A stretch of DNA of 64,000 bases from Chryseobacterium sp. 52 (GTDB lineage: Bacteria; Bacteroidota; Bacteroidia; Flavobacteriales; Weeksellaceae): positions 372,001-436,000 of the forward strand of contig NZ_PEEX01000001.1 of assembly GCF_002754245.1 (NCBI RefSeq), in the 5' to 3' direction. Position 1 is the stretch's first letter, and every line of letters starts with the position of its first letter. Of the stretch, positions 8,471 through 43,029 are shown in pieces. The position numbers and the translations under genes were made by a program. The notes beneath the pieces are model-generated. The model was not told the DNA's origin and did not search any database. It saw only the letters and a list, made by a program, of their open reading frames with translations.

Positions 8471-11400
8471 ATGAAAAAAAAATCGACACTCAAGATTTTT
8501 GCTGCAGTATTTTGTATTGCATCATCTCATGCTTTTTCGGGGACAATACCGATCCCGAAACTTAATGAGAACCTCAATAGGGTCGGATTTAAAACACCAA
8601 TACCACCCGGTGTTTATGATCTGGATCCGTTGATAACCATTTCACAAAATGTGAATGAAAAAGGACTGGTTTTAATGAGTGGCAAACTCTCCAAGCCTTT
8701 CACAGACAACAACATTCTCCTTTCTGTTAAGTATCAAAATACTCAGGGAGAATGGATTACCGGCTGGTGTAAGACGTTATATTCTTACAATCAGTATAAC
8801 GAAAATTTAAAGGCAACCTTTGAACTCCCTCCTTCTACAAGCACCGTTTACAATTTAAAGGTTGAGCTAAGCTCAGATTCAAGCACAGCCAACTTTAGCA
8901 GCGTAATTTGGGATAAGACTACAAGCCATTATAAACAGGGAGATTATGCTCCTGGTAATTGTGATCTGGATGAAAATGAATATACCATGCTCTTAACGCC
9001 TAAAAAAGCAGGTACACTTATTACAGACACTAATGGAAAAGCTACAGGAATCAAAGACAGAGTGACTTCAGCTTATTCATGGAATAAATTGAGTAATGTC
9101 TTAATGGATAATAAAAAAAACGATATCGTTTTTTCGCCAACCAATCCATCAGATATAATAACAGATTCCAATGGTAATAAATCGGTAAAGATGGTGAATA
9201 CAGGAGCAATCGGTAATACACTGGGATCTACGCCTGAGTTTATCTACAATGAAGCGGCCGGACACCCTATTCCTTACCTGTATAGCTATGATGATCCTGT
9301 ATATATGTTTGCCGGTAAATTTTCAGCAAATGGATTTTTCATGAAATTCAGTCAATGGCCCGGAGATTCTGACGGTCCGGGATATTATAATTTTAAAGAC
9401 CCCAATAAGGTAGAAAGCAGATATTTTAATCTGTATAACAGAACCTGGAAGAATTTATCTGAATTCATTCCTGATCAGCAGCCTGTAGTCATTGTATCCA
9501 GTCTGGCAACTGGATTAAGAGCCTATAAAAGTGATGGTACCTATATAAATCTGACCCCGAACAGTACCAGTAATTATGGAGACCCTTATTTCGGATATAC
9601 CAATGGTCAGGGAGTCCGTAGGGGCCCTGGTTCAGAAAACTTACTTATTTCTGATACATCCGAAATGACTCTTTACGGGGCCGGAGCTTTAAGAAATGAT
9701 GCCACCTCATCCTATCAGACAAAAAGATCGTTGCAGGATATAGAAAGAGAAGTTTCCAGGTTCATTAAGTACACAGGAGTTTTTGGAGATACAACAGCTT
9801 ATAAAAATGACGCATCAGAATGTTCTGTAAGCTGCTTTACTATTAATTCAGGAGCACAGCCTGATGTTGTAGCAGACTGGACCAAAGCCCCGAACAGTTA
9901 TATTTTCACGGGTAAAGATAAGAATGGAAATTCCGTAGATGGTTTATACATCCCTGTAAAAAAAGCTTACGAGATGTGGGCTAAAGGAGGTGATTTCATG
10001 AAAGATGACAATGGTAATTATACTAAGATTCCACAAGGCGTTGCCAAAGCTGGTTTGTATTGGGAAGATGAACCAGGCCTCATCAAGTCTGTTACTCTGG
10101 AAGGCACAGAAGAAAATGCCAGGATTAAAGTAATAATTAATAAAATAAAAGAAGGGAATGCCGCCATATCCTACAAAGTAAATGATAAGATCTACTGGAC
10201 ATGGCATGTATGGGCAACTGATGATCCCGGTATCAACGGCAGTACTTATCATCATGGTTTTGAAAAAGACAAAGAAGGAACTGTCGTTACAGACTGGAAA
10301 TGGATGGATAGAAACCTGGGGGCTACCAATGCAAGCTTCGTAGGAAATGACTGGCATAAATCAGCCGGATTACAGTATCAGTGGGGAAGAAAAGATCCGT
10401 TCCCATCGTTTGGTCTTAAGGATTTAAGCCTTTATCCTATCAATGGAGAGATCAATTTAGCGTATACTGACCCTGCTTTTCAATCTAAATTTATAAAAGT
10501 AAGAGGAAATAAATATTCTTCTCAAATCAATACAGGAACAGATACTCCAAACGGAAATATCAGATTTTCTATACAAAACCCGATTAACTTTATCGCAACG
10601 CCCGTGTATGTTGCTAAAAAAGGGGAAGCATTGCTCAATGACGGCGAAGACTTTTTAAAACAAAATAATAATGACAGCTGGACACAGGTAGGCATTACCA
10701 CTTGGTTTTCAAAAGAAAAATACAAAAAATTTATTCCTCCTTACCGCGAAAATATAACGGCATGGGATTTATGGGGCGATACACGTCAGGGAAATTATTC
10801 AGATATGGACGATCCTGCCGTTGGAGAAGCCAGTACAAGATATGCACTGAAGTCACCATATGACCCATGTCCTTGTAACTGGAGAGTTCCTTCAAGTTAT
10901 TTTTCAGGAGGAAGAAACTCCAGCACTCCAATGCCTGATGAAAACAGATACAGCCCTTGGGGAAAACACACCGGAAGTACAGCTAACCCTGAATTTAATG
11001 GGACTGCTTTAAATGCTGACTATCCGGGTATAAAAATTTATCCTCAGTTTGGATTTGATTTTTCAGGGGTGTCCGGAATGAATTTAGGGAAGTTTCCTAT
11101 CAACGGAAACTATGAAGCATACCCTAATGGAACAAGTCCTTTAAAATACGGAGCAGGATGGATAACTCCTGTTCTCAATTTCCAGGACCAGAGTGCAGAT
11201 GGCGGATTATTAACGACTACATTTATTACAGCTTCAGAAATGATCAATCAGGTAAGATATCCTTCCTTTGGTGCTGCAGGATTGGCATTGATTTCCGATC
11301 CATTAAGCGGTTCCAAACCAAGACCGGGATGGCACAGATTTTCCGGCAGCTCTTATAGTAGCAGTGGTGGTGTACGTTGTATATATGACCCAAACAATTC

Positions 11401-27348: not shown

Positions 27349-28848
27349 ATGTTAAATTTCTTCAAGAAAAACGCGGCACTTGTCTGGGCAAAGAAACATG
27401 TTCAGAAAACTGTGGAATTCAAAAAAAACTCAGAGAAAAATCAGGAAGCTCTTTTGCTGTCTCTTATAAAGACGGCTCAGAAAACTCTTTTTGGAAGGGA
27501 ACATGATTTTGAGAACATCCATTCTATCAAAGAATTCCAGGAAAAAGTATCTGTTGCGGACTATGAAGATTTAAAACCTTATATCGAAAGGGTAAAAAAA
27601 GGACAGGCTAATATCCTGTGGACAGACACTCCGGAGTATTTTGCAAAAACTTCAGGAACCACCTCCGGCTCAAAATACATTCCTATATCAAAAGAAGGAA
27701 TGCCGTTTCAGATTGCGGGTGCACAGAGTGCATTGTTTCATTATATCGCACAGAATGGCAATGCCGATTTTGTCAATGGAAAAATGATCTTTCTTCAGGG
27801 AAGTCCCGAGATGGAAGAGGTTTTCGGAATAAAAACAGGAAGACTGTCCGGGATTGTTGCCCATCATATTCCCCGTTACCTCCAGAAAAACCGCCTCCCA
27901 AGCTGGAATACCAATATTATGGAGGATTGGGAAGCTAAGGTAGATAAGATTATCGAGGAAACCGAACATGAAAACATGACGCTGATCTCAGGAATTCCGC
28001 CATGGCTTATCATGTATTTTGAAAAGCTTACTGAAAAGCATGGTAAAAAAATCAAACAGCTTTTCCCTAATCTCCAGCTCCTTGTCACAGGAGGGGTCAA
28101 CTATGAACCTTACCGGGATAAAATGGAGGATCTGCTGGGAGGAAAAGTTGACATTATACAGACATTTCCTGCATCCGAAGGCTTTTTTGCTTTTCAGGAT
28201 GATTATACTAAAGAAGGACTACTTCTTTTAACCAATCATGGAATTTTCTATGAATTTATTCCTTTGGAGGAATATGGCAAACCCGGAGCACGAAGATTAA
28301 CTTTAAAAGACGTAGAACTTAATAAAGATTATGCGTTGATTCTTACTACAAATTCCGGTTTGTGGGCCTATTCCATTGGGGATGTTGTACGCTTTATTGA
28401 TAAGAATCCCTATAGAATTCTGGTGAGTGGAAGGACAAAACATTTCACTTCGGCTTTTGGAGAGCATGTTATCGCCTTTGAAGTAGAGGAAGCTATTAAG
28501 GCTGCGTTAGAAAAACACCCTGCCCAGATTATAGAATTCCATCTTGCTCCACAGGTTAATCCTAGCGAAGGACTTCCGTATCATGAATGGCTGATAGAGT
28601 TTGAAAAGAAACCTGAAGACATGGAGTTATTCAGAAACGAGCTGGACCATCAACTTCAGAACAGGAATACATACTATAAAGATCTTATTACGGGAAATAT
28701 TCTTCAGCCCCTTCATATTACAGCACTGAAAAAGAATGCTTTCCATGAATATGCAAAATCCCAGGGTAAATTAGGCGGACAGAATAAAACACCAAGACTC
28801 GCCAATGACAGAAAAATTGCAGATCTATTAGAAATTTACAAACTTTAA
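27349..28848 (+). CDS. GH3 auxin-responsive-promoter-family protein (acyl-adenylating enzyme)
   Basis: 499 residues, full length for the bacterial GH3 family. The three nucleotide-binding motifs of the ANL-like GH3 fold are present: SGTTSGSKYIP (about residue 102), FPASEGFFAFQ and YSIGDVVRF. In plants GH3 enzymes join amino acids to acyl acids via an adenylate; the bacterial substrate is unknown. The start is supported by a TAAATTTG box only 4 bases upstream, which suggests a leaderless message. Neighbours are small envelope proteins and give no pathway. Confidence 0.92.
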   Translation: MLNFFKKNAALVWAKKHVQKTVEFKKNSEKNQEALLLSLIKTAQKTLFGREHDFENIHSIKEFQEKVSVADYEDLKPYIERVKKGQANILWTDTPEYFAKTSGTTSGSKYIPISKEGMPFQIAGAQSALFHYIAQNGNADFVNGKMIFLQGSPEMEEVFGIKTGRLSGIVAHHIPRYLQKNRLPSWNTNIMEDWEAKVDKIIEETEHENMTLISGIPPWLIMYFEKLTEKHGKKIKQLFPNLQLLVTGGVNYEPYRDKMEDLLGGKVDIIQTFPASEGFFAFQDDYTKEGLLLLTNHGIFYEFIPLEEYGKPGARRLTLKDVELNKDYALILTTNSGLWAYSIGDVVRFIDKNPYRILVSGRTKHFTSAFGEHVIAFEVEEAIKAALEKHPAQIIEFHLAPQVNPSEGLPYHEWLIEFEKKPEDMELFRNELDHQLQNRNTYYKDLITGNILQPLHITALKKNAFHEYAKSQGKLGGQNKTPRLANDRKIADLLEIYKL

Positions 28849-30699: not shown

Positions 30700-31311
30700 A
30701 TGAATAAACTTCTATTAATTTTTGGCTTTCTTCTGGCAGGCTCCTGGGCAAACGCTCAAAGCTTCACAGACAAAGCTCTACAACAAACTGTTTTACAGCT
30801 TAATAACGCAAAAACAGTGAACGACTACGATAGTGTTTTCAATAAATTTTCAGATGCAAAGACTTCTGAAAGATGGCAGTCGTTTTACTATACCGCTGTC
30901 GCTTTGTATCTTAAAACCGAACTTCAGCTCAAGAAAGCATCAGGCCAAAACCTCAATGAATCGAATGCTGTAGCCCGAAAACTGGCTATTGGAGCATTGA
31001 CATCCCAACGTGACAATGCTGAGATCAACACATTGATAGGTCTGCTTTATTTTCAGAAGACACAACTCAATGGTTCTCAGGACATACAACAAGATTGGGA
31101 CGCGATCAATCAGACAATTGCAAAAGCTGAAAAAAGCGCGCCAAACAATCCAAGACTGGCCATCCTAAAAGCAAGAATAAAAGAAAAATCCGGAGATAAA
31201 GTGAATGCTGACATGCTATCTCAAAAAGCACTAAGCGGATTTGAAAATCAGAATTCTTCAGATAGTACTTCTCCAGCATGGGGCAGACAGTTACTTCAAC
31301 CCACTAAATAA
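30700..31311 (+). CDS. Secreted helical (TPR-like) protein
   Basis: 203 residues. Signal peptide to WANA, then an almost entirely helical protein: QQTVLQLNNAKTVNDYDSVF, WQSFYYTAVALYLKTELQL, INTLIGLLYFQKTQL, NPRLAILKARIKEKSGDK and ADMLSQKALSGFE. The last helices look like tetratricopeptide units. It probably works in the periplasm as a protein-binding scaffold. It is 32 bases upstream of the first T9SS-B adhesin-like gene and could be co-transcribed with it. Confidence 0.8.
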   Translation: MNKLLLIFGFLLAGSWANAQSFTDKALQQTVLQLNNAKTVNDYDSVFNKFSDAKTSERWQSFYYTAVALYLKTELQLKKASGQNLNESNAVARKLAIGALTSQRDNAEINTLIGLLYFQKTQLNGSQDIQQDWDAINQTIAKAEKSAPNNPRLAILKARIKEKSGDKVNADMLSQKALSGFENQNSSDSTSPAWGRQLLQPTK

Positions 31312-31343
31312 TCTGAAGATTTAAAAAATTAAAACTGATCAAA

Positions 31344-33455
31344 ATGAAAAAATATCTACTGATTTTTCTATTTTTCATAACTCAAATGGTTTTTGCGCAG
31401 CAAGATTGCGTCACAGCCATCCCAATATGTAGTGATGCTGCTATTTCCCTGACCCCTAACGGATGGGGAAGTGTTCATGAAGGGGAAGTGGGTTGCCTTA
31501 CGCCAAGCCCACCCTCAACCACACAAGGAGAAAGTAACTCTATTTGGCTTACTTTCAGTATTGAGACTGCAGGAACCTTAACTTTTGTAGTTACCCCTAC
31601 AGGTCCCGGAGCCACGAATATTGATTATGACTTTGCTCTTTACGGACCCAACCATAACTGTGCTAATTTAACAGCAACCCCTTTGAGATGTTCATATGCA
31701 GGTCTTGCTAATTTTGGAGCAATCAACCCGACAGGTCTTAACATGACCTCTACAGATACTACTGAAGGTGGTGGTGGAGATGGGTATGTAAAATATATTG
31801 ATGTACTTCCAGGACAGATATATCATTTACTTTTAAATAACTACTCCCCTACTATTGCACCGTTTACACTAACTTTCGGAGGTACAGCTACTTTACTTAC
31901 GCCGTTTGATAATAACTCATCACACACGTATCAGCCTAATCCGTTTTTACAGCCTGGCCCGAATTCAAATGGTGAAATTCCGGTATGTAGTGCTATTGTA
32001 AATTATGATTTTTCAACATTTTCAGCACACATCTTAAATTCGAATCCTAATTTCATAGTAAAATATTACAGAAGTGCCACTGATGCTTTAGATGATTTAA
32101 ACCCTATTACTGCGCCTATCAATATCAATGTAGCCAATACCTATACTTATGCTATCAGCTATGTTGATCCGGGCAGCACGACAAGTTTCTTAAATCAGTG
32201 TAGAGAATTCGGAACCATAAAATTCCTGGATAAAAGTTTCGCATTAGCACCTGCAACGCTCACTTCTTGTAGCAACAATGGCTCAGGAACAGCATTGTAT
32301 GATCTGACAACTGCGAATGTAAACGCAACACCGAATCTTACATTAAAATATTACCCTTCATTAGCAGCTGTTAATGCAGGAATCAGTGAGATTACCAATC
32401 CTTACGTTTATTATTCTGCTGCAGGATCTGCGTATGTAAAAGCAACCAATGAATTTGGATGTACAGCAATAGCAGAAATTACCCTGAAATTCCATCCGCT
32501 GGTAACCGTAACTGATGCTGCTTTAAGATCATGCTTCCTGGAAACGAACCATTCACTGGGAACATTCAATCTTAGCAATGCTCCGGTAGCTGTTGGTTCA
32601 GTACCTAAAAAATATTATCCTTCTCTGGCAGATGCTGAGAACGGAACCAATGAAATATTAAATTTCTTAACGTACACGGCTCCAACAGGGGTAGTTTATA
32701 TAAAAGTATTTAATGCACAGGGATGTTATTCGATTGCCAAAGTAACACTAACCGTACTTTCACCTGTTTACTCTAATGTTTTACAGGACAAGATCATCTG
32801 TATTGAGGATAAAACAACATTGGATGCCGGCCCTGGATTCAACGGTTATGAATGGAGCACGGGAGCAACTACACAGGTCATCAACAATGTAGCTGTAGGA
32901 ACCTACTGGGTAAAATTGAAAACAGGTGACTGTATCAGTATGCAAACTGTAAAAGTATATGCTTCTGAGCAACCTGTTGTTTCAAGCATTGATATTTCAA
33001 ACACCACCATCACGGTGAATGTAATTTCCGGAACTCCGGGTTATAAATACTCTATGGACAATACCAACTGGCAGGATTCTAATGTATTTACCAATATTTC
33101 AAGAGGAGACCACAAAGTATACGTAAAAGATTCTTACGACTGTGAACCTATTGAAATTAATGTTGTTGTCCCTAATCTTATCAATGTTATTACTCCAAAC
33201 GGAGACGGTGTAAACGATGTGATAGATTATTCGGCTTTATCAGGAAAACAAAGCCTTGTATTGAGTATCTTTGACAGATATGGAACCAAAATCCACCAGG
33301 CTGATAAGTCTAACGGATTCAAGTGGGATGGAACAGTTGCCGGTAAAAAGATTCCTACAGGAACATACTGGTACTCTGTAACATGGAATGAAAATGATAA
33401 AAAGAATACACCATTCAAGTTTTCAGGATGGGTAATGGTAAAAAACAGAGAATAA
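31344..33455 (+). CDS. T9SS type B secreted adhesin-like protein (paralogue 1)
   Basis: 703 residues. Signal peptide to VFAQ. The N-terminal beta domain begins QDCVTAIPICSDAAISL and is shared with the next gene. Two repeats of about 85 residues follow, each with a cysteine, F/Y-(D/N)L, (K/L)KYYPSLA and GC-x4-AKVTLTV. Then come a TTLDAGPGFNGYEWSTGATT PKD/SprB-like module and a further Ig-like unit. The final about 90 residues (LINVITPNGDGVNDVIDY, IFDRYGTKI, WDGT, PTGTYWYSV) are a type B gliding-motility-associated T9SS sorting domain. A SprB-like or surface matrix protein is likely. Its C-terminal two thirds closely match paralogue 4 (40771), not paralogue 2. Confidence 0.88.
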   Translation: MKKYLLIFLFFITQMVFAQQDCVTAIPICSDAAISLTPNGWGSVHEGEVGCLTPSPPSTTQGESNSIWLTFSIETAGTLTFVVTPTGPGATNIDYDFALYGPNHNCANLTATPLRCSYAGLANFGAINPTGLNMTSTDTTEGGGGDGYVKYIDVLPGQIYHLLLNNYSPTIAPFTLTFGGTATLLTPFDNNSSHTYQPNPFLQPGPNSNGEIPVCSAIVNYDFSTFSAHILNSNPNFIVKYYRSATDALDDLNPITAPININVANTYTYAISYVDPGSTTSFLNQCREFGTIKFLDKSFALAPATLTSCSNNGSGTALYDLTTANVNATPNLTLKYYPSLAAVNAGISEITNPYVYYSAAGSAYVKATNEFGCTAIAEITLKFHPLVTVTDAALRSCFLETNHSLGTFNLSNAPVAVGSVPKKYYPSLADAENGTNEILNFLTYTAPTGVVYIKVFNAQGCYSIAKVTLTVLSPVYSNVLQDKIICIEDKTTLDAGPGFNGYEWSTGATTQVINNVAVGTYWVKLKTGDCISMQTVKVYASEQPVVSSIDISNTTITVNVISGTPGYKYSMDNTNWQDSNVFTNISRGDHKVYVKDSYDCEPIEINVVVPNLINVITPNGDGVNDVIDYSALSGKQSLVLSIFDRYGTKIHQADKSNGFKWDGTVAGKKIPTGTYWYSVTWNENDKKNTPFKFSGWVMVKNRE

Positions 33456-33472
33456 TCAATTATTAAAAATAG

Positions 33473-33499
33473 AAAACCGCTCTACGGGGCGGTTTTTTT
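33473..33499 (+). terminator. Terminator of T9SS-B paralogue 1
   Basis: Stem aaaaccgc / gcggtttt with an 8-base loop, followed by a T run, 17 bases after the stop. Confidence 0.8.
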
Positions 33500-33560
33500 C
33501 AACATAAATGCTGATAACTTTATTTTTCTCAAATCTTGTTTCACGAAAATCATTTTAAAC

Positions 33561-35687
33561 ATGAAAAAAACAATACTTTTTTTAATTTTATTAATATCGC
33601 AGGTATTCTACTCGCAGTCTGACTGCGTTTCAGCAATACCAATATGTGGAAACTCTGAACTTTCATATACTCCATCAGGCCCGGGACTTATTGATGAGGG
33701 CATCGGACCCAATTCATGTCTTAACGACACTGAGAATGAACACTTTTCTGTATGGTACACCTTCACAATTGCTACCTCCGGAACTTTAGTATTTACAATC
33801 GATCCAAACGTTAATGGCGATGACTATGATTTTGCAGTCTATGGCCCTACCAGCAATGGATGTACTTCTTTAAGCACCAACAACGTTTTTGTAACGCCAA
33901 TCAGATGTAATTATAACGGAAGTACTGCAACAGGAAATACAGGACTATCTTTAACCCTGCCTCCGCCACCTCCGCCAAACACAAACGGAAACGCTGGAAA
34001 TGCAGCAGAATGGAGCCCATACATGGACGTACTGGCTGGTGAAACATATTATCTTATTATAGATAACTTCAGAAGTTCTCCGGACGGATTTAAAATGATC
34101 TGGGGTGGTACCGCTACATTAAGTTCAGCGTTTAACGATCCTGTTCTGGCTCCTAATCCTTTTATACCACCCGGCATTCCTACCGCTACGCCTACAGATC
34201 CTACTGAAATTATGGTATGCGGGCTTCCGTCACAATTTAACTTTGCGACACTTACTGCCGGTATTATCAATGGAAACAGTGCTAACTTTAAAGTAACTTA
34301 TCATGATAATGTTAACGATGTGGTTACGGGAGATGATCCTTTAACAATTGCTACGGTAAATGCAGCCACTACCTATTACTATAGAATCCGATACCTGGAT
34401 CCTGACAACCCGGACAATGCCGTCAACAAATGTTTCATAAGCGGGAAGTTTAAATTCAAAGATGCAAGCATTACAGCAAGAAATGCTATAGTTCTTGCCT
34501 GCAACAACAATGGGGAAGGCACTGGAAAGTTTGATCTTACAACAGCAGATGTATTTACAGGTCCTGTTACTAAAAAATACTATCCTACTCTTGCAGACCT
34601 GAATGCTGACACTAACGAGATTACCAATCCAAACAGCTACATTTCGGTACAGAAAACAGTATACGCAAAAGTAATTTCTGCGTTTGGATGTACAGCTATA
34701 GCAAACATCACCCTAACATTCCATCCTGTAGTTACATTAAGAGATGCACTGATAGAAGAATGTTATATTGAAAACGATATTATGCAGTCTAAATTTGACC
34801 TGACACTGGCCAATGTAGGCGCCATCGCAGGACAGACAAAAAAATTCTATAAAACACTAGACGACGCAAAAGCAGAAACCAATCCAATAGCTACTCCTGG
34901 TGCTTATCTTACTGTGAGCACTGAAGTTTATGTAAGAGTGACCAACGCTAATCAGTGTTATGCTATTTCCAAGATCACATTGAGAGTTCTTCCTCCGGTA
35001 AAATCTGCTGTATTGAAGGATAAAACAATCTGTGCTGAAGCTAAAACAACATTGGATGCAGGACCTGGATTTGATGGATACGAATGGAGCACAGGTGCTA
35101 CTACACAGTCTATCAGCAACGCCGGAATAGGTGTTTATTGGGTGAAATTAAAAACAGGAAAATGTTTTACACTTCAGACAGTAACCATTTTTGCATCTAC
35201 GCAGCCGGTAATTTCAAGTGTAGAGATCAGCAATAATTCTATCACCGTGAATGCTTCAGGCGGAACTCCTCCTTATATGTATTCAATAGACGGAGTTACC
35301 TGGCAGGCATCTAACACATTCAGCGGACTTCCTAGAGGAGAAAATAAAATATTCTTAAAGGATTCTTACAACTGTAACCCTATCCAGATTACAGTAACTG
35401 TACCGAATCTTATTAATGCGATCACTCCGAACGGTGATAAGATAAACGACGAGATTGACTACTCTGCTCTGGCTTATAAGAAAAATCTAATATTTATCGT
35501 ATACGACAGATATGGGAACAAGCTTTATGAAGCTAACAAAATGAGAGACTTTAAATGGGACGGTACAGCTTCCGGGAAGAAAATTCCAACAGGAACTTAC
35601 TGGTACACGATCTCATGGAATGAAAATGATAAAAACAGTACCGAAACGAAATATTCAGGTTGGATACTGGTAAAAAATAAAGAATAG
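33561..35687 (+). CDS. T9SS type B secreted adhesin-like protein (paralogue 2)
   Basis: 708 residues with the same architecture as paralogue 1: signal peptide to VFYSQ; an N-terminal domain starting DCVSAIPICGNSELSY with a proline run (LPPPPPPNTNG, about residues 134-144); two repeats with FDLTTADV and FDLTLANV; the TTLDAGPGFDGYEWSTGATT module; and the type B sorting domain (LINAITPNGDKINDEIDY, VYDRYGNKLYE, PTGTYWYTI). The N-terminal half pairs with paralogue 1, while the C-terminal half (SAVLKDK, ALAYKKNLIFIVYDRYGNK) pairs with paralogue 3. Confidence 0.88.
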   Translation: MKKTILFLILLISQVFYSQSDCVSAIPICGNSELSYTPSGPGLIDEGIGPNSCLNDTENEHFSVWYTFTIATSGTLVFTIDPNVNGDDYDFAVYGPTSNGCTSLSTNNVFVTPIRCNYNGSTATGNTGLSLTLPPPPPPNTNGNAGNAAEWSPYMDVLAGETYYLIIDNFRSSPDGFKMIWGGTATLSSAFNDPVLAPNPFIPPGIPTATPTDPTEIMVCGLPSQFNFATLTAGIINGNSANFKVTYHDNVNDVVTGDDPLTIATVNAATTYYYRIRYLDPDNPDNAVNKCFISGKFKFKDASITARNAIVLACNNNGEGTGKFDLTTADVFTGPVTKKYYPTLADLNADTNEITNPNSYISVQKTVYAKVISAFGCTAIANITLTFHPVVTLRDALIEECYIENDIMQSKFDLTLANVGAIAGQTKKFYKTLDDAKAETNPIATPGAYLTVSTEVYVRVTNANQCYAISKITLRVLPPVKSAVLKDKTICAEAKTTLDAGPGFDGYEWSTGATTQSISNAGIGVYWVKLKTGKCFTLQTVTIFASTQPVISSVEISNNSITVNASGGTPPYMYSIDGVTWQASNTFSGLPRGENKIFLKDSYNCNPIQITVTVPNLINAITPNGDKINDEIDYSALAYKKNLIFIVYDRYGNKLYEANKMRDFKWDGTASGKKIPTGTYWYTISWNENDKNSTETKYSGWILVKNKE

Positions 35688-35707
35688 ATTTATTCTTATA
35701 TCACAAG

Positions 35708-35739
35708 AAAAGACTGTCGTAAACGACAGTCTTTTTTTT
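35708..35739 (+). terminator. Terminator of T9SS-B paralogue 2
   Basis: Stem aaagactgtcgt / acgacagtcttt, nearly perfect with a very short loop, followed by a long T run. Confidence 0.88.
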
Positions 35740-35957
35740 ATCTTTTTTCACGAAATCCAATCAGTCTTCTTTAATCATGGTGAATAATTGAAAAAATATT
35801 TATCTTTTTCATCCGAGTGAATATTACTTATTGAAAATTTTCTATTTTTGATCCCCGTTTTTTACTAACATTCTCATACCTCCTGTCCATTGCATGCTAC
35901 ACAGGATTGCTGATAACTTGTTAGTTACTATTTTTTAATTATTTTTTTTAAATAAAC

Positions 35958-35965
35958 TATCTTTG
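35958..35965 (+). promoter_or_regulatory. -7 promoter box (TATCTTTG) ending four bases before the dnaB start codon
   Basis: Exact TAnnTTTG match; ATG at 35970 follows after catt. Transcription from this box should begin at or beside the start codon. The 230 bases between the upstream terminator and this box contain no gene. Confidence 0.5.
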
Positions 35966-35969
35966 CATT

Positions 35970-37559
35970 ATGGCGCAGAAAGAAACATTATCATCCCTTA
36001 CACACGGAAACTTTGCAAGAGAACTGTCTATTGCGGATGGAAAAATGCCTCCCAATGCTGTAGATTTTGAAAGACTGGTTATCGGAACTTTTTTAATTGA
36101 TAAAAAGGGACTTGACCACTCTATTGACCTTCTTACTCCGGAAGTATTTTATGACCCCAGACATCAGGTTATTTTTTCCACAATCTTAAAGCTTTATGAA
36201 GCCAATCATCCTGTGGATCTTATGACGATTATTCAGGAGTTAAAAAAGGAAGATAAATTAAGCCAGGCGGGTGGCGACCATTATATCATTGATCTTACGA
36301 TGGGTGTAAGTTCATCTGCCCATATTGAATACCACGTACGTGTTATCCTTGAAAAATATATTTTAAGAAGTCTGATCAATGTTTCCGCCAATGTGATTGA
36401 TTCTTCATATAAAGAATCTACCGATGTATTTGAACTTTTGGACAAGGCCGAGCAATCCTTCTTTGAAATCACCAACGGAACGATTAAAAAAGGATTCGAC
36501 ACGGCTAATTCATTGGTAAAACAGGCTATTGAAACCATTAAATCTTTGAAAGATAAAGAGGGACTTTCGGGAGTTCCTTCAGGATTTAGAGATATTGACA
36601 AAGAAACCGGAGGCTGGCAGAATTCCGACCTCATCATTATTGCTGCCCGTCCGGCGATGGGTAAAACAGCGTTTCTTCTGTCCATGGCAAGAAATATTGC
36701 CGTAGATCACAAGATCCCAATGGTGCTTTTCTCTCTCGAGATGGCATCTGTACAGTTGATCACCAGGATGATTGCTTCTGAAACGAAAATCTCTTCCGAA
36801 AAACTGAGAAAGGGAACTTTGGATGATGAAGAATGGCAGAGACTTTTCTCCAATGTATCAGAACTGGAAAATGCTCCGTTATTTATTGACGAAACCCCGT
36901 CACTTTCTATATTCGACTTCCGGGCAAAATGCCGAAGACTGGTTATGCAGCATGGTGTAAGGCTTATCATGGTCGATTATCTCCAGCTGATGACCGCAGG
37001 AAGCGGAGGAAAAGGAGTTGGAAACCGTGAACAGGAAATCTCCATGATCTCCCGTTCATTAAAAGCTATTGCTAAGGAACTTAACGTCCCGGTTATCGCA
37101 CTTTCACAGCTGTCAAGAAGTGTGGAAGCCCGCCCCGGAAAAAGGCCTCAGCTTTCTGACCTTAGAGAATCCGGAGCAATTGAGCAGGATGCGGATATTG
37201 TATCGTTTATCTTCAGACCGGAATATTATAAAATCGCCGTGTGGGATAATGATGAAGAAGGCCAGGAAAGTCCAACAGAAAACCAGGCAGAGCTCATCAT
37301 CGCAAAACACAGGAATGGAGCGACGGCAGATGTAAGATTATCATTCTTAAAACATTTTGCAAGATTTGGTGATATTGAAGCTGCCTTAGATGGTGGTTTA
37401 GGCGGTTATCCTTCTAATTTCGGATCCAACGAACCTAGTGGTTTTGACAAAATAAAGACAACGATTCAGCCGGGTGCAGCATTTGACCTTCCGGACAGTT
37501 CAAAATTATCAGGATCTTCAATGAATGACTTTGATGACGATGATGATTTCCCGTTTTAA
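35970..37559 (+). CDS. dnaB: Replicative DNA helicase
   Basis: 529-residue DnaB, the hexameric helicase that unwinds the replication fork. The N-terminal primase-interacting domain begins PPNAVDFERLVIGTFLID. A RecA-like C-terminal domain follows, with Walker A ARPAMGKTAF (about residues 226-235), the SLEM motif, Walker B IMVDYLQLM (about 336), ALSQLSRSVE and an ESGAIEQDAD segment. The acidic tail is DDDDDFPF. There is no intein. ATG 35970 is 4 bases after a TATCTTTG box; a second Met at residue 26 (MPPNAV) would also leave the full conserved domain. rnhA follows after 73 bases. Confidence 0.96.
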   Translation: MAQKETLSSLTHGNFARELSIADGKMPPNAVDFERLVIGTFLIDKKGLDHSIDLLTPEVFYDPRHQVIFSTILKLYEANHPVDLMTIIQELKKEDKLSQAGGDHYIIDLTMGVSSSAHIEYHVRVILEKYILRSLINVSANVIDSSYKESTDVFELLDKAEQSFFEITNGTIKKGFDTANSLVKQAIETIKSLKDKEGLSGVPSGFRDIDKETGGWQNSDLIIIAARPAMGKTAFLLSMARNIAVDHKIPMVLFSLEMASVQLITRMIASETKISSEKLRKGTLDDEEWQRLFSNVSELENAPLFIDETPSLSIFDFRAKCRRLVMQHGVRLIMVDYLQLMTAGSGGKGVGNREQEISMISRSLKAIAKELNVPVIALSQLSRSVEARPGKRPQLSDLRESGAIEQDADIVSFIFRPEYYKIAVWDNDEEGQESPTENQAELIIAKHRNGATADVRLSFLKHFARFGDIEAALDGGLGGYPSNFGSNEPSGFDKIKTTIQPGAAFDLPDSSKLSGSSMNDFDDDDDFPF

Positions 37560-37632
37560 AATTTAGGTCACAACCATCTTTTGTGGCTGATATCTTTAGT
37601 AGGTTTTAAACAATTCAATTTTATAAACAAGT

Positions 37633-38109
37633 TTGAGAATAGAAATATATACTGACGGCGCATGCAGCGGAAATCCGGGAAAAGGAGGCTATGGAATTCT
37701 CATGCGTGTTCCTGAAAAGAACTATCAGAAAACATTTTCCAAAGGATTCAGAAAAACAACCAATAACAGGATGGAACTTCTGGCCGTTATTTCTGCTATG
37801 GAAAAACTAAAATCTTCGGAGAATGATATCCATATTTATACAGACAGCAAATACGTAGCAGATTCGGTGAATCAAAACTGGATTGCCGGATGGATCAAGA
37901 GAGGATGGAAAAATGTAAAAAATCCTGATCTCTGGAAAAGATTCATTGAGATGTACAATAAACACACTCCAAAATTGCACTGGGTAAAAGGCCATGCAGG
38001 ACACTTTGAAAATGAACTCTGTGACAAGCTTGCCGTTGCTGCAGCCAATTCATCTGACCTAGAGATTGATACTTATTTCGAAGGCCTGGAAAGCAACTCT
38101 CTTTTTTAA
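37633..38109 (+). CDS. rnhA: Ribonuclease HI (TTG start)
   Basis: 158-residue RNase HI, which cleaves the RNA strand of RNA-DNA hybrids. Catalytic residues: Asp8 in YTDGACSGNPG, Glu48 in NRMEL, Asp71 in YTDSKY, and the last Asp in ENELCDKLA, with the HWVKGHAG loop. The basic handle region WIAGWIKRGWKN is present. The start is TTG at 37633: a stop (TAA, 37624-37626) lies three codons upstream and there is no ATG or GTG before the first conserved strand. It is probably read with dnaB. Confidence 0.94.
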   Translation: MRIEIYTDGACSGNPGKGGYGILMRVPEKNYQKTFSKGFRKTTNNRMELLAVISAMEKLKSSENDIHIYTDSKYVADSVNQNWIAGWIKRGWKNVKNPDLWKRFIEMYNKHTPKLHWVKGHAGHFENELCDKLAVAAANSSDLEIDTYFEGLESNSLF

Positions 38110-38230
38110 TGAGTCTAAATTCATATTCACAACATTCAATATTCACCTATTTATTATGTTATTCGTTGAAAAATCATTATCGTTTTCAGGAAAATTAACA
38201 TTAAATACATATTAATTAATTGGGATTTAA

Positions 38231-38238
38231 TATATTTA
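38231..38238 (+). promoter_or_regulatory. Variant -7 box (TATATTTA) upstream of the lectin-type T9SS-B paralogue 3
   Basis: TATATTTAC, one change from TAnnTTTG, 30 bases before the ATG at 38269. The same sequence stands 29 bases before paralogue 4, which supports a shared function. Confidence 0.35.
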
Positions 38239-38268
38239 CACCATCTAATGTAAAGTAATCCCAATTCA

Positions 38269-40521
38269 ATGAATAAATTTTTACTGTCTTATATATCTTT
38301 CTTTCTGCTTTTTTTGTCAGGAGGATTGTTTTCCCAGACGTATCAGCTCACCGGAAATCCGGTGAATACCACTGGATGGACAATGGTTAACCCTACACAA
38401 GTAAACGGCGATTTTGTTCAGCTAACTCCGGATACCAACAATCAATCCGGATCAATCAGACTGAATGACCCCATCAACTTAAAATACTGCGATAAGTGGA
38501 GAGTGGAATTTGATTTCAGAATGGATTCCAACCAAACATCCAATGGAGACGGAATTGCATTTTGGTATCTTGCAAATCCACCTGTAGCCAGTGTATTAGG
38601 CTCCGGTCTTGGAGTTTCTCAAAATGCGGTAGGCTTTATTGTAGGATTCGATACTTACAACAATACAACCACAGCCACGATGAGTAAAGTGCATGTTGCT
38701 TACGGACAGGTCGCCAATACATCTGACACCAACAATGTAGAGTTTTTCAATACTGCAGGCAGCTCTTTTCACTCACCGGACCTGAATACAACCCAACCTT
38801 TTCAGGGAACTACTTTTAAGCATGTTGAAGTAACAGCCCAGGTAGACCCGGCTATTCCTACCAACTGGATTGTAAAAATTACAATTGACGGAACTGTCAT
38901 CTGTAATCAGTCTTTCGCTCCTGCAGGTACAGCAGCAGCAATGACTGTGGGATATTTCGGTTTTTCAGCTTCTACAGGGGGTGCAAGATCAAGACATTCT
39001 ATTAAAAATGTAAAAATCTATACAGATAAAGTCCCTATTTTACAAACTACGGCCACACAGTCTTTCTGTCCAAATCCGACTACAGGATTCGGAACTGTTA
39101 ATTTAACCACTTTCAATTCTCAATTTGTAAATACCCCTTCTAACTATACGTTCACCTACCTTCAGGGTTCAACACCTATAGCGACTCCTACGAATTTTCA
39201 ATTCAACGCAAATACCACAGTCACTGTAGTTGTAAAGGATAATGCAGGGATATTATGTGACAATCCGGATGGAAAAATACTGCTCGTCCTTGCGCCTCTT
39301 ACACTTACAGATAAGCCTCTAACAGCATGTAACAACAATAAATCCGGAACAGGATTATTCAACCTCAACGCAGCAGATGTAGCGGGCGGACTTAGTGTCG
39401 TTAAAAAATACTACAAAACACTGAATGACCTGAACACCAACACCAACGAAATCACCAATCCGGGCACCTATACTTCTGCAGCCGGAACCGTATACGTAAA
39501 AGTAACGACACCACTGGGCTGTACCGGTACAGCAAAAATCACATTAGCATTTTACCCTGAAACCCCCGTAAGAGAAGTTACATTAAGATCATGCTTTCTG
39601 CAAAACAATATTACCAGCGCAGTATTTGATCTTACTACAGCCAATGTAACAACACTGACAAGCGGTTTCACAAAAAAATATTACACAAGTGTAGCCAATG
39701 CTTTGAGCGGAACCAACGAGATCGTAAATCCATCTCAGTATCTGTCTGTAAGTACAGCAGTATATATAAAAGTAACAGATGCCAATGCATGTTTCGCTGT
39801 GGCAAAAGTAAATCTTATTGTACTTCCACCAGTGACATCTGCTGTTTTAAAAGACAAAATAGTATGTATTGACGGAAAAACCAATCTGGATGCAGGCCCA
39901 GGATTTGATGGTTACGAATGGATCACGGGCGCAACAACTCCTTCTATCCAAAATGTTGGCGTAGGTCTTTATTGGGTTAAATTAAAAACCGGAGACTGTA
40001 TCACAACACAGATTGTAAAAGTTATTGCTTCTGCCAACCCTGTTGTTACAAGCATCGATATCAATAATACAACAGTGACCGTGAGTGTTTCAGGAGGTAC
40101 TCCACCGTATAAATATTCTTTAAATGGTATAGACTGGCAGGATTCAAATACATTTACAGGACTTCACAGAGGCGAAGCAAAAGTTTTCGTTAAAGATTTT
40201 TATAACTGTACCCCTGTTGAAGTACAAATCACTGTTCCAAACCTCATCAATGCAATCACACCGAACGGCGACAACATCAATGATGTTATTGATTATTCTG
40301 CACTGGCCTACAAAAAGAATCTCATATTCATCGTATATGACAGATATGGCAATAAACTCTATGAAGCAGACAAAATGAGAAACTTCACATGGGACGGAAC
40401 TGCTTTCGGCAAAAAGATTCTTACAGGAACTTACTGGTACTCCATCTCATGGAATGAAAACGATAAAAATAATACACCTACAAAATACTCAGGTTGGGTA
40501 TTGGTAAAAAACAGAGAATAA
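38269..40521 (+). CDS. T9SS type B protein with L-type lectin-like domain (paralogue 3)
   Basis: 750 residues. Signal peptide to LFSQ. An N-terminal L-type (legume-like) lectin domain spans about residues 24-250: YQLTGNPVNTTGW, WRVEFDFRMDS, GDGIAFWYLANP, VGFDTYNN, KHVEVTAQVD and GYFGFSASTGG. Two C-x3-N repeats, the NLDAGPGFDGYEW module and the type B sorting domain (LINAITPNGDNINDVIDY, VYDRYGNKLYE) follow. A glycan-binding surface adhesin is likely. The N-terminal half pairs with paralogue 4; the C-terminal half pairs with paralogue 2. Confidence 0.88.
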   Translation: MNKFLLSYISFFLLFLSGGLFSQTYQLTGNPVNTTGWTMVNPTQVNGDFVQLTPDTNNQSGSIRLNDPINLKYCDKWRVEFDFRMDSNQTSNGDGIAFWYLANPPVASVLGSGLGVSQNAVGFIVGFDTYNNTTTATMSKVHVAYGQVANTSDTNNVEFFNTAGSSFHSPDLNTTQPFQGTTFKHVEVTAQVDPAIPTNWIVKITIDGTVICNQSFAPAGTAAAMTVGYFGFSASTGGARSRHSIKNVKIYTDKVPILQTTATQSFCPNPTTGFGTVNLTTFNSQFVNTPSNYTFTYLQGSTPIATPTNFQFNANTTVTVVVKDNAGILCDNPDGKILLVLAPLTLTDKPLTACNNNKSGTGLFNLNAADVAGGLSVVKKYYKTLNDLNTNTNEITNPGTYTSAAGTVYVKVTTPLGCTGTAKITLAFYPETPVREVTLRSCFLQNNITSAVFDLTTANVTTLTSGFTKKYYTSVANALSGTNEIVNPSQYLSVSTAVYIKVTDANACFAVAKVNLIVLPPVTSAVLKDKIVCIDGKTNLDAGPGFDGYEWITGATTPSIQNVGVGLYWVKLKTGDCITTQIVKVIASANPVVTSIDINNTTVTVSVSGGTPPYKYSLNGIDWQDSNTFTGLHRGEAKVFVKDFYNCTPVEVQITVPNLINAITPNGDNINDVIDYSALAYKKNLIFIVYDRYGNKLYEADKMRNFTWDGTAFGKKILTGTYWYSISWNENDKNNTPTKYSGWVLVKNRE

Positions 40522-40535
40522 AAGCCTTTTTATAT

Positions 40536-40566
40536 AAAAATCACTCCAGATAAGGAGTGATTTTTT
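40536..40566 (+). terminator. Terminator of T9SS-B paralogue 3
   Basis: Perfect 12-pair stem aaaaatcactcc / ggagtgattttt with loop agataa. It ends 4 bases before the first ATG of the longest frame of the next gene, which argues for the later start at 40771. Confidence 0.88.
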
Positions 40567-40733
40567 AATATGTTGTGCCATACAAAACAAACTCTTCTGT
40601 TTTTCATTTCAATAAAGAAAACAGAAAGCATATTTTTAATTAATTATCATATATCCGTTGAATTAATTATAAAATTGACGATTTATATTAATCAATTGAC
40701 AATTATTCATTATATAAAGAAGAAGAAAACAAA

Positions 40734-40741
40734 TATATTTA
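40734..40741 (+). promoter_or_regulatory. Variant -7 box (TATATTTA) upstream of the lectin-type T9SS-B paralogue 4
   Basis: Same TATATTTAC as upstream of paralogue 3, 29 bases before ATG 40771. Confidence 0.35.
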
Positions 40742-40770
40742 CAAGAATAACCTCAAACCAATCGCTTCAC

Positions 40771-43029
40771 ATGAAAAGAAAACTACTCATTTATTTTTTA
40801 GCCATTTTTCTTAGCTTTTCAGGACAGTTATTTTCGCAGACCTATCAGCTTGCAGGAAACCCTGTCAACACTACAGGCTGGGACCTTGTTTCAAATGCAG
40901 CTGTTGATAACGACTTCGTTCGTCTTACCACAGACAATACCAGTTTATACGGAGCCATAAAACTGGCTACCCCCATCACATTAAGTTATTGTGACAAATG
41001 GAAGGTAGAATTTGACTTTAGAATTGACGGAAACGGAACAACACAGTTCGGAAGAGGAGATGGATTTACTTTCTGGTATCTTGTCAACCCTCCAACAGGA
41101 TTTGTATCCGGTGGCGGACTTGGAATTCCGGGAAATGCATCAGGACTTATGGTTGGATTCGACATCTTCAACAATTCCACAGAAGGACAGATGAGTAAAA
41201 TACATTTACTGTATGGAACCAATGACACTGCCGGAAATAATATCGAGTATAATAATACCGCAGGCAGCACATTCCACTCTCCAGACCTTATTGCCACTCA
41301 ACCGTTCGTAGGTCCGGTCTACAAACATGTAGAAGTAAACGGAGAAACCGACCTTACCAACCCGACCAAATGGATCATAAAAATAAAGCTTGACGGCATT
41401 CTGATTGTTGACCAGTCATTTGCCCCATCAGGAGGAGCCATCGGAATGTCACAGGGATATTTCGGATTTTCAGCTGCGACAGGAGGTGCATCTGCAAGAC
41501 ACTCTATCAAGAATGTAAAAGTTTTTGTAGATAAAGTGCCTATCCTCAACGCTACCGTTACTCCATTTGTATGTACCAATCCAGTAACAGGCACAGGATC
41601 TGTAGATCTTACGTCTTTCAATTCGCAGTTTGTTAATAATCCTGCGAACTATGTATTTACTTATTATGTTTTAGGAAGTTCAACACCTATTACTAACCCG
41701 GCTAACTTCCCATATTCAGGGAATACGACCATCAAAGTCGTCATTAAAGACCCTAGTTCTACCCTCTGCGACAACGGAGACGGAGTTATACAGCTTAACC
41801 CTACACCATTTGCCGCAACAGATGCTTCTCTTACGGGGTGTAACAACAATAATGCAGGTACTGCAATCTTTGACCTTACTACCGCCGCATTAACAACGGT
41901 ACCAGGTTGTACTATGGAGTTCTACAATACCATGTTTGACCTGAACGCAGGAATCAACCAGATTCCTAACCCTACCGCTTATGCATCAGGAGCCGCTATA
42001 CTATTTGCAAAAGTTACCACACCTCAGGGATGTGTAAGTACGGCCAAGGTTACCCTGAGCCTTAATCCCGTGGTGGTAGTTACGGATGCTTCTTTAAGAT
42101 CTTGTTTCCTTGATACTAATCCTTCACTGGGAACATTCAACCTTAATAATGCTCCGGTAACCGTTGGAACAGCACCGAAAAAATATTACCCTTCTCTGGC
42201 AGATGCTGAAAGCGGGACAAATGAAATTTTAAATTTCTTAACCTATACTGCTCCATCCGGAGTAATTTATATCAAGGTTTTCAATGCACAGGGATGTTAT
42301 TCAATCGCAAAAGTTACGTTAACCGTTATATCTCCTGTTTTATCCAGCGTACTGAAAGATAAAATCATCTGTATTGAAGATAAAACTACACTGGATGCAG
42401 GACCTGGATTCAATGCCTATCAATGGAGTACTGGCGCAACCACACAAACCATCACAAATGTAGGCGTAGGAACCTACTGGGTAAAATTAAAAACCGGAGA
42501 TTGTATCTCGATGCAGACCGTAAAGGTATACGCTTCAGAGCAACCTGTAGTGACCAGCATAGACATTTCAGGAAGTACGGTTACTGTTTTCGTGAATGGA
42601 GGAACTCCTCCGTACCAATACTCAATGGATAATATACATTGGCAGGATTCCAATATATTTACCAATGTAGCCAGAGGTGAGACTAAGATATATGTAAAGG
42701 ACAATTATGATTGTGACCCTATCGAGATCAATATCACAGTTCCTAACCTTATCAATGTGATCACTCCAAACGGAGACGGTGTGAATGATGTCATTAATTA
42801 TTCTGCCCTTGCCAATAAAAGAAATCTTGAAATAGGAATTTTCGACAGATACGGATACAAAATGTTCCAGGCGGATAAATCCAACGGATACATTTGGGAC
42901 GGTACGACCAACGGAAGTAAAAAAGTTCCTACAGGAAACTACTGGTATTCTATCACATGGAATGAAAGCAACAGCAAGAATACACCAATCAAATTCTCAG
43001 GTTGGATTATGGTAAAAAACAGAGAATAA
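40771..43029 (+). CDS. T9SS type B protein with L-type lectin-like domain (paralogue 4)
   Basis: 752 residues from ATG 40771; the frame stays open 67 codons further back, but that part is AT-rich, lies just after a terminator and precedes a clear signal peptide (MKRKLLIYFLAIFLSFSG, ending LFSQ). An L-type lectin domain (YQLAGNPVNTTGW, WKVEFDFRIDG, GDGFTFWYLVNP, VGFDIFNN) is followed by two repeats, the TTLDAGPGFNAYQWSTGATT module and a type B sorting domain (LINVITPNGDGVNDVINY, IFDRYGYKM, WDGTTNG). It is close to paralogue 3 at the N-terminus and close to paralogue 1 from the second repeat onward. Confidence 0.88.
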   Translation: MKRKLLIYFLAIFLSFSGQLFSQTYQLAGNPVNTTGWDLVSNAAVDNDFVRLTTDNTSLYGAIKLATPITLSYCDKWKVEFDFRIDGNGTTQFGRGDGFTFWYLVNPPTGFVSGGGLGIPGNASGLMVGFDIFNNSTEGQMSKIHLLYGTNDTAGNNIEYNNTAGSTFHSPDLIATQPFVGPVYKHVEVNGETDLTNPTKWIIKIKLDGILIVDQSFAPSGGAIGMSQGYFGFSAATGGASARHSIKNVKVFVDKVPILNATVTPFVCTNPVTGTGSVDLTSFNSQFVNNPANYVFTYYVLGSSTPITNPANFPYSGNTTIKVVIKDPSSTLCDNGDGVIQLNPTPFAATDASLTGCNNNNAGTAIFDLTTAALTTVPGCTMEFYNTMFDLNAGINQIPNPTAYASGAAILFAKVTTPQGCVSTAKVTLSLNPVVVVTDASLRSCFLDTNPSLGTFNLNNAPVTVGTAPKKYYPSLADAESGTNEILNFLTYTAPSGVIYIKVFNAQGCYSIAKVTLTVISPVLSSVLKDKIICIEDKTTLDAGPGFNAYQWSTGATTQTITNVGVGTYWVKLKTGDCISMQTVKVYASEQPVVTSIDISGSTVTVFVNGGTPPYQYSMDNIHWQDSNIFTNVARGETKIYVKDNYDCDPIEINITVPNLINVITPNGDGVNDVINYSALANKRNLEIGIFDRYGYKMFQADKSNGYIWDGTTNGSKKVPTGNYWYSITWNESNSKNTPIKFSGWIMVKNRE

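What the first reader, a model, noticed from the sequence alone, without database searches (positions are those of the whole stretch)
31344..43029. Four T9SS-B paralogues form a crosswise mosaic
The genes at 31344, 33561, 38269 and 40771 are paralogues, but their halves pair differently. N-terminal domains and the first repeat group 31344 with 33561 (QDC..AIPIC head, FGCTAIA in repeat 1) and 38269 with 40771 (L-type lectin head, VTTPxGC in repeat 1). From the second repeat to the C-terminus, 31344 groups with 40771 (near-identical stretches such as NEILNFLTYTAP and SMQTVKVYASEQPVV) and 33561 with 38269 (ALAYKKNLIFIVYDRYGNK). The switch falls near the end of repeat 1 (about 32490-32535 and 42060-42105). 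This is the pattern expected from recombination or gene conversion that swaps adhesin heads on a shared secretion tail. dnaB and rnhA lie between the copies.
Basis: seen in the sequence. Interest (0 to 1): 0.7.

Follow-up and report, generated by a model that had tools for sequence, protein, structure and literature searches.

The report
Surface-protein genes swapping heads, sharing tails
Four related surface-protein genes around an essential replication gene in a Chryseobacterium bacterium are patchworks: their export tails fall into two old classes that cut across their binding heads, one tail repeat is still copied between two of the genes, and the head of one gene appears to have come from another species.

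Summary
The crosswise mosaic is real. The genome is a Chryseobacterium. Four type B type-IX-secreted proteins flank dnaB-rnhA. Heads pair g1+g2 (PPC-like sandwich) and g3+g4 (L-type lectin); tails pair g1+g4 and g2+g3 (100/100; g1+g2 rejected, pAU 0.0005). Comparison with 98 species of the genus separates three layers. (1) The tail classes are shared across sampled species, so this is not a recent swap. (2) Repeat 2 of g1 and g4 is still converted: copies within a genome are more alike than between genomes (p 5e-5, also in 10 later species; silent sites p 0.0036), unlike the other five pairs. (3) g1 carries a foreign 5' block: orf203, head and repeat 1 (30708 to 32430-32495) match another clade, the rest its sisters; it is the only one of 22 clade members with this head. 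At this slot two head families change at least 9 times over 95 species. Import is favoured; collapse of a local tandem array is not excluded. New variant of known adhesin allelic exchange and gene conversion; a shared shuttle as the cause of tail homogenisation is inference.

The parts
30700..31311 (+). orf203: 203-aa protein with an apparent signal peptide (by eye) upstream of g1. No Pfam match; weak sub-cut-off match to a TPR family.
   Evidence: directly upstream of 36 of 36 family-B heads and 21 of 59 family-A heads. My label 'tpr' in notes and scripts is a guess.
31344..33455 (+). g1 (slot u1): T9SS type B surface protein; head family B, two repeats, Ig-like domain, SprB-like repeat, CHU_C sorting domain; class-1 tail
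30708..32495 (+). Block of foreign origin: orf203 + g1 head + repeat 1. Left end near 30700-30708; right end between 32430 and 32495.
   Evidence: left end; right end between aa 363 and 384; relationship; sisters lack it
31404..32249 (+). g1 head; model residues 17-186 align to a bacterial collagen-binding domain
32250..32504 (+). g1 repeat 1 (aa 303-387)
   Evidence: alignment, strands; borders set by eye
32505..32765 (+). g1 repeat 2 (aa 388-474): gene-conversion tract shared with g4
32766..33170 (+). g1 Ig-like domain and SprB-like repeat
   Evidence: the Ig part shows an amino-acid but no silent-site excess with g4
33171..33452 (+). g1 type B sorting domain
   Evidence: TIGR04131 71.1 bits, cut-off 35; PF13585 60.5 bits
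33561..35687 (+). g2 (slot u2): T9SS type B protein, head related to that of g1, class-2 tail
35970..37559 (+). dnaB, replicative helicase, between the pairs
   Evidence: TIGR00665 533.9 bits
37633..38109 (+). rnhA, ribonuclease HI
   Evidence: NF001236 179.9 bits
38269..40521 (+). g3 (slot d1): T9SS type B protein with L-type lectin head, class-2 tail
   Evidence: PF03388 55.4 bits, cut-off 24
40771..43029 (+). g4 (slot d2): T9SS type B protein with L-type lectin head, class-1 tail
   Evidence: PF03388 58.5 bits; PDB sequence match to the VIP36 lectin domain, E 5e-7
42076..42336 (+). g4 repeat 2: conversion partner of g1 repeat 2
   Evidence: (register)

Best explanation
The four genes combine two old tail classes with two head kinds, held at fixed positions around dnaB-rnhA in the sampled Chryseobacterium species. 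Three processes made the present pattern. (a) Before the sampled species diverged, one tail class came to sit on g1 and g4 and another on g2 and g3 (the classes are shown; how they arose is not known). (b) Since then g1 and g4 have repeatedly exchanged sequence by gene conversion inside repeat 2 in the window's clade, across about 9.6 kb and over dnaB (shown statistically; homologous recombination is the inferred agent). (c) In the window's lineage, orf203 plus the head and repeat 1 of g1 were replaced by DNA from another Chryseobacterium clade, recombining in the leader before orf203 and near the end of repeat 1 (the two-sided mosaic is shown; import is inferred). The likely outcome is that binding heads are exchanged while tails stay compatible with the type IX export machinery. 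Because this genome has 16 type B tails but only two clear PorP/SprF shuttles, most tails probably share one shuttle, which would favour homogeneous tails (inference).
For: Tail classes: g1+g4 | g2+g3 100/100; g1+g2 as a clade pAU 0.0005; g2+g3 99/93 with seven other own-genome tails included. Conversion: within-genome against between-genome g1-g4 repeat 2 0.798 vs 0.759 nt, p 5e-5 in 19 species; 0.799 vs 0.754, p 5e-5 in the 10 of them not used at first; fourfold sites 0.522 vs 0.479, p 0.0036, and amino-acid identity between the two copies in one genome 0.850 above g1 orthologue identity 0.809; window-group g1 and g4 each rejected as clades in repeat 2 (pAU 0.011, 0.0095). Specific: the other five pairs show no repeat-2 excess (10 tests, lowest p 0.094). 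Import: 65 of 74 diagnostic sites fit one switch at aa 363-384, p 1e-4; 138 of 154 fit aa 363-369 with 20 sisters and 9 reference species, and 182 of 232 fit aa 371-381 with 3 sisters and 4 reference species, both p 5e-4; W is the only B-head in a 22-row clade with support 100/100; B heads of the other clade are not one group without W, pAU 0.013, orf203 pAU 0.030. Shuttles.
Against: Repeat-1 pairing is weakly supported. Donor direction of the repeat-2 conversion is unresolved (pAU 0.26 and 0.15). One search made 40 tests: the silent-site p of 0.0036 was for the segment named beforehand but would not survive correction for 40, and one pair not thought to convert (g1-g2, CTD) has a silent-site p of 0.0084. 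The Ig-domain excess in g1-g4 is amino-acid only (silent sites p 0.45). In grp4 (7 species) no g1-g4 excess is seen in any segment. In the window group g2-g3 show nothing that survives correction. W's head is 84-87% identical to its nearest relatives, so no recent donor is identified. One species outside the clade carries both head families in tandem, so local array collapse is possible. The sets tested were named after the species tree was seen.
Confidence: 0.72

Rival explanations
1. Local array collapse: the ancestor held tandem genes with A and B heads at slot u1, and unequal crossing-over or deletion left one head in each lineage. No transfer between species is needed.
For: G112 (L145/L175) has MFS, an A-head gene, orf203, a B-head gene, g2, dnaB in a row; G128 (L148) has two orf203-like genes; L164 has an additional A-head gene with a class-1 tail and L166 two g2-like genes; L167 looks like L164. 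Collapse between repeats would explain variable right ends and why orf203 goes with B.
Against: The window is the only B-head among 22 clade members, and none of the other 21 shows two heads at u1 in the stretch fetched, so the array would have to persist and collapse separately in many sister lineages. The B-head tree puts W with 11 heads of the other clade (98/92), and that clade's heads alone are rejected as one group (pAU 0.013), which vertical inheritance does not predict without further paralogy.
Confidence: 0.2
2. Convergence or shared constraint: g1 and g4 tails resemble each other because both fit the same partner, with no DNA exchange.
For: The Ig-domain excess in g1-g4 is seen in amino acids only. 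Type B tails are recognised by PorP/SprF shuttles (PMC12618676, section 7 and passages read).
Against: Repeat 2 shows the within-genome excess at fourfold degenerate sites too (p 0.0036, one of 40 tests). The tract is bounded: repeat 1 shows no amino-acid excess (p 0.99) in the same genomes.
Confidence: 0.1
3. Duplication history alone: the pairing reflects the order of ancient duplications and domain fusions, with no later recombination.
For: Slots are fixed and tail classes are shared across the sampled species.
Against: Different segments of the same genes have different trees, and repeat-2 copies intermix by genome. g1 is a two-sided mosaic.
Confidence: 0.03

Closest known systems
Porphyromonas gingivalis domain rearrangement and allelic exchange of surface proteins (PMC5266723; abstract and passages read)
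   Same: Bacteroidota; some of the proteins carry a conserved type IX C-terminal domain; variants are mosaic and do not follow strain phylogeny; exchange plus gene conversion proposed.
   Different: There, strains of one species, with gingipain/adhesin modules and other surface proteins. Here, species of one genus, type B tails, heads of a PPC-like and a lectin kind, and two named exchange partners on either side of dnaB.
Helicobacter pylori babA/babB paralogue gene conversion (PMC4552749 and PMC3960876; search listings only, otherwise recalled)
   Same: Paralogous outer-membrane adhesins with conserved ends and variable binding part; conversion between loci (recalled).
   Different: In Bab the variable binding part is exchanged between loci (recalled). 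Here the converted tract lies in the tail and the head is replaced, probably from outside.
Long-lasting concerted evolution in prokaryotes (PMC6053082; abstract and passages seen by term search)
   Same: Recurrent conversion keeps paralogues in one genome alike over many species.
   Different: The reported 26 genes are mostly members of important pathways or complexes. Here it is confined to one repeat of a surface protein. The words Bacteroidetes, secretion and adhesin do not occur in that main text.
Orphan type B CTD substrates sharing one shuttle in Flavobacterium johnsoniae (PMC12618676; abstract, section 7 and passages read)
   Same: Type B tails without an adjacent PorP/SprF gene.
   Different: There 3 of 12 are orphans, with the shuttle found by experiment. 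Here none of the three shuttle-family matches lies near g1-g4, by sequence search only.

Membership tests
T9SS type B substrate | C-terminal type B sorting domain (TIGR04131 / PF13585) | tested here: met
   4 of 4 over the cut-off of 35 bits: 71.1, 61.0, 57.4, 65.8
T9SS type B substrate | Exported by the type IX system | not testable with these tools
   Sequence only
Type B substrate with cognate adjacent PorP/SprF shuttle | PF11751 gene next to the substrate gene | tested here: not met
   Three matches in the genome, at 1260476, 2513166 and 921907 (the last 26.6 bits, with a stop inside); none near 403344-415029
L-type lectin (g3, g4 heads) | PF03388 above gathering score | tested here: met
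   55.4 and 58.5 bits, cut-off 24; PF18483 60.3 and 39.8 is below its cut-off 78.3
SprB repeat protein | PF13573 above gathering score 28 | tested here: not met
   22.4 (g2), 24.3 (g3) and 14.6 (g4) bits; g1 not listed
PPC / collagen-binding-like head (g1) | Same beta-sandwich fold | tested here: inconclusive
Concerted evolution by gene conversion | Paralogues within a genome more alike than orthologues between species | tested here: met
   Repeat 2 in amino acids only: 0.850 vs 0.809. Not met there at fourfold sites (0.522 vs 0.536), nor in repeat 1, Ig, SprB or CTD
bab-type adhesin variation | Switching within a population or host, phase variation | not tested
   One genome per species is held

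The most novel reading that the evidence does not exclude
The block around dnaB is a genus-wide exchange locus with division of labour. Slot u1 is an entry point where an orf203-head-repeat cassette is replaced between species, while the partner across dnaB (g4) acts as a resident template that keeps re-homogenising the adjoining repeat, so that incoming heads always meet a familiar tail. An essential gene between the two partners makes deletion by crossing-over lethal and so preserves the pair. orf203 would be a partner specific to the incoming head.
Probability: 0.2. Interest if true: 0.7.

Novelty: new variant of a known kind. Interest (0 to 1): 0.5.

Why it matters
It gives a natural series of dozens of species in which heads, repeats and secretion tails of one protein family recombine at mapped points. 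That shows which parts are free to change and which are held together, and yields testable predictions about head partners (orf203) and shared shuttles. It also shows that paralogue similarity seen in one genome can mix an ancient tail class, current conversion and import, which a single-genome reading cannot separate.

Tried and rejected
Right end of the swapped block at the head/repeat-1 border: BLAST end points suggested u1 aa 299-314 in several pairs. Rejected after a site-by-site test: ends vary, aa 363-381 in W, 378-381 in L148, 468-475 in L034 and L132, 493-497 in L143, 535-548 in L033 and L135, none in L141 (p 1.0). Local alignments had run through the diverged repeat 1. The border reading in my notes is superseded; so are the clade sizes of 23-24 given there (22 is the set tested).

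Genus taken as Flavobacterium at first (note); corrected by record titles.

Amino-acid breakpoint test on the four genes: not significant. Donor direction of the repeat-2 conversion: unresolved. Conversion of g2-g3 in the window group: nothing that survives correction (repeat 1 p 0.036). grp3 (11 species) does show it in the SprB segment, p 0.0001, with repeat 2a p 0.0045, and grp3 g2-g4 repeat 2a has p 0.0012. One search made 126 tests on 36 of 41 genomes in four groups that I named after seeing the trees; only values of about 4e-4 or less survive a Bonferroni correction, and the grp2 Ig value (0.0004) is on that line. Competence genes comEC and dprA are present, but also in 10 and 11 of 14 control genomes including E. 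coli, so they say little. No dnaB was found beside the g3-like gene in the two other-genus stretches fetched (L173, L174); other genera were not surveyed for the layout.

Dropped rows: of 100 fetched neighbourhoods plus W (101), 99 had dnaB and rnhA and 95 a classifiable u1 head; L173 and L174 were left out as other genera; L054, L164, L166 and L167 had no classifiable u1 in the stretch fetched. L165 was dropped from the B-head tree as a broken frame (35 of 36). One protein under 500 aa (of 154) was dropped from the main alignment. The trees use 16 of 41 genomes and those use 10; d3 genes were left out of both. Families A and B are single-linkage clusters at 58% identity, a threshold I chose. 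The species trees use dnaB and rnhA, which are linked to the locus; the bootstrap had not settled.

Literature: no paper on this locus or on recombination of type B tails in Chryseobacterium was seen in the listings (open-licence PMC only; the longer listings were cut, e.g. 15 of 101 shown, 15 of 49, 12 of 19).
Full report

CHECK OF THE OBSERVATION. The g1-g4 similarity jumps at g1 32517 / g4 42088. The four-gene site test puts one switch at 32469-32478 (p 0.0086) for nucleotides; the amino-acid test does not support one (p 0.77). Repeat 1 groups g1+g2 against g3+g4 over 60 sequences with 95/92 support, without rejecting g1+g4 (pAU 0.10); the tail groups g1+g4 against g2+g3 with 100/100 and rejects g1+g2 (pAU 0.0005).

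LAYER 1, OLD TAIL CLASSES. I fetched 40 then 58 neighbourhoods of the genus around rnhA, of 173 held genomes of the genus including the window's own. The layout (one or two genes, dnaB, rnhA, two or three genes) recurs, with one upstream gene missing in some clades and third genes in others. Tails cluster as u1+d2 and u2+d1 across species. With seven other type B tails of the same genome and two from other genera added, g2+g3 stay together (99/93), while three other own-genome proteins join the g1+g4 class (99/97); g1+g4 alone is then not a clade in the best tree but is not rejected (pAU 0.27). So class 1 is a tail used at several places of the genome and class 2 a narrower one. The crosswise pairing predates the sampled species; how it first arose is not resolved.

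LAYER 2, CURRENT CONVERSION IN REPEAT 2. In the window's clade, g1 and g4 of one genome are more alike in repeat 2 than g1 and g4 of different genomes. First set of 9 species: 0.805 vs 0.758 in the first part of the repeat, p about 1e-4. Ten further species, fetched later: 0.799 vs 0.754, p 5e-5; all 19: 0.798 vs 0.759, p 5e-5. None of the other five pairs shows a repeat-2 excess in those two sets (10 tests, lowest p 0.094). Repeat 1 of g1-g4 shows 0.596 vs 0.588, p 0.017 in the ten, and no excess in all 19 (p 0.17). Silent sites agree (0.522 vs 0.479, p 0.0036, in a call of 40 tests). In the repeat-2 tree neither g1 nor g4 of the group is a clade (pAU 0.011, 0.0095). In other clades the g1-g4 excess sits in the Ig domain (grp2, p 0.0004) or along the tail (grp3, 11 species), and is absent in grp4 (7 species).

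LAYER 3, A FOREIGN 5' BLOCK IN g1. The 21 other members of the window's clade, and L172, which lies outside both large clades, show no orf203 and carry a different u1 head. Homology of the window to its sisters stops 100 bp after the MFS stop codon, at the start of orf203 (8 sisters, 5, some in both). It resumes near the end of repeat 1: of 74 diagnostic sites 65 fit a single switch between aa 363 and 384, p 1e-4; with 20 sisters and 9 reference species, 138 of 154 fit a switch at aa 363-369, and with 3 and 4, 182 of 232 fit aa 371-381. Downstream, g1 matches its sisters (tail identity 0.89-0.95 against head 0.38-0.40 in the 8 pairs of W with sisters listed). The window's head lies with 11 heads of another clade (98/92); that clade's heads without W are rejected as one group (pAU 0.013; orf203 pAU 0.030).

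HEAD TURNOVER AT THIS SLOT. Over 95 species, u1 heads fall in two families, A (59) and B (36), which are still alignable to each other at about 40-50% identity. They need 13 changes on one tree and 15 on another, of which supported branches force at least 9. 36 of 36 B heads have orf203 directly upstream; 21 of 59 A heads do, and in the group examined orf203 beside A heads is a different version (C-terminal half 0.43 identity between, 0.78-0.85 within). Heads differ by slot: among pairs with flanking identity over 0.92, the head is 15 or more points below the tail in 380 of 542 for u1, 149 of 332 for u2, 7 of 542 for d1 and 0 of 509 for d2. Lectin heads are thus conserved while u1 heads turn over. 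Right ends of the swaps vary along the gene, as expected if any shared stretch can serve for recombination. A species with A and B genes in tandem shows that local rearrangement also happens; for the window I favour import because no clade member examined shows two heads at u1.

WHY TAILS MIGHT BE KEPT ALIKE. The genome has 16 type B sorting domains but two clear PorP/SprF proteins and one weak match. In F. johnsoniae three orphan type B substrates share one shuttle (PMC12618676, section 7 read). Inference: most of these tails share a shuttle, so homogenised tails are tolerated or favoured, while heads diversify. This was not tested here. That dnaB between g1 and g4 blocks deletion by crossing-over is likewise inference.

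NOVELTY. Allelic exchange and domain rearrangement of surface proteins, type IX ones included, is described within P. gingivalis (PMC5266723, abstract and passages), and conversion of adhesin paralogues is known from H. pylori (listings and recall). What I did not find in the listings searched is the genus-wide series, the partner-specific conversion confined to a tail repeat, and the orf203-head block exchanged at a fixed slot. I rate it a new variant of a known kind.

Noticed in passing
G000:C1:5195824-5208614, 1956879-1962870, 1476206-1478353, 2167096-2175766: Ten of the twelve other type B proteins of the genome lie in these four places; one (1476206-1478353, 715 aa) is a full-length fifth paralogue, 57% identical to g1, and two others share class-1 tails at 62-67%.
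   Followed up: partly
G000:C1 genome-wide: 16 type B sorting domains against only two clear PorP/SprF shuttle proteins and one weak match.
   Followed up: partly
L044, L050, L057, L058, L059, L063, L064, L151, L153, L158, L169, L170: An extra or replacing downstream gene of 663-690 aa with a g3-like lectin head on a class-1 tail; its length suggests that one repeat is missing, a natural head-tail chimera. The missing repeat was not checked directly.
   Followed up: no
L145/L175, L148, L164, L166, L167: Tandem expansions around slot u1, including A and B heads side by side (L145) and two orf203-like genes (L148).
   Followed up: partly
L122, L124, L132, L165: Some of these genes are split into two or more frames; sequencing error or real inactivation not distinguished.
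   Followed up: no
window 8471-13435: 1654-aa protein with a Por_Secre_tail secretion domain (PF18962), not one of the type B proteins.
   Followed up: no
window 27349-28848: GH3-like protein matching lyso-ornithine lipid synthetase OlsH below its cut-off (388 of 620 bits).
   Followed up: no
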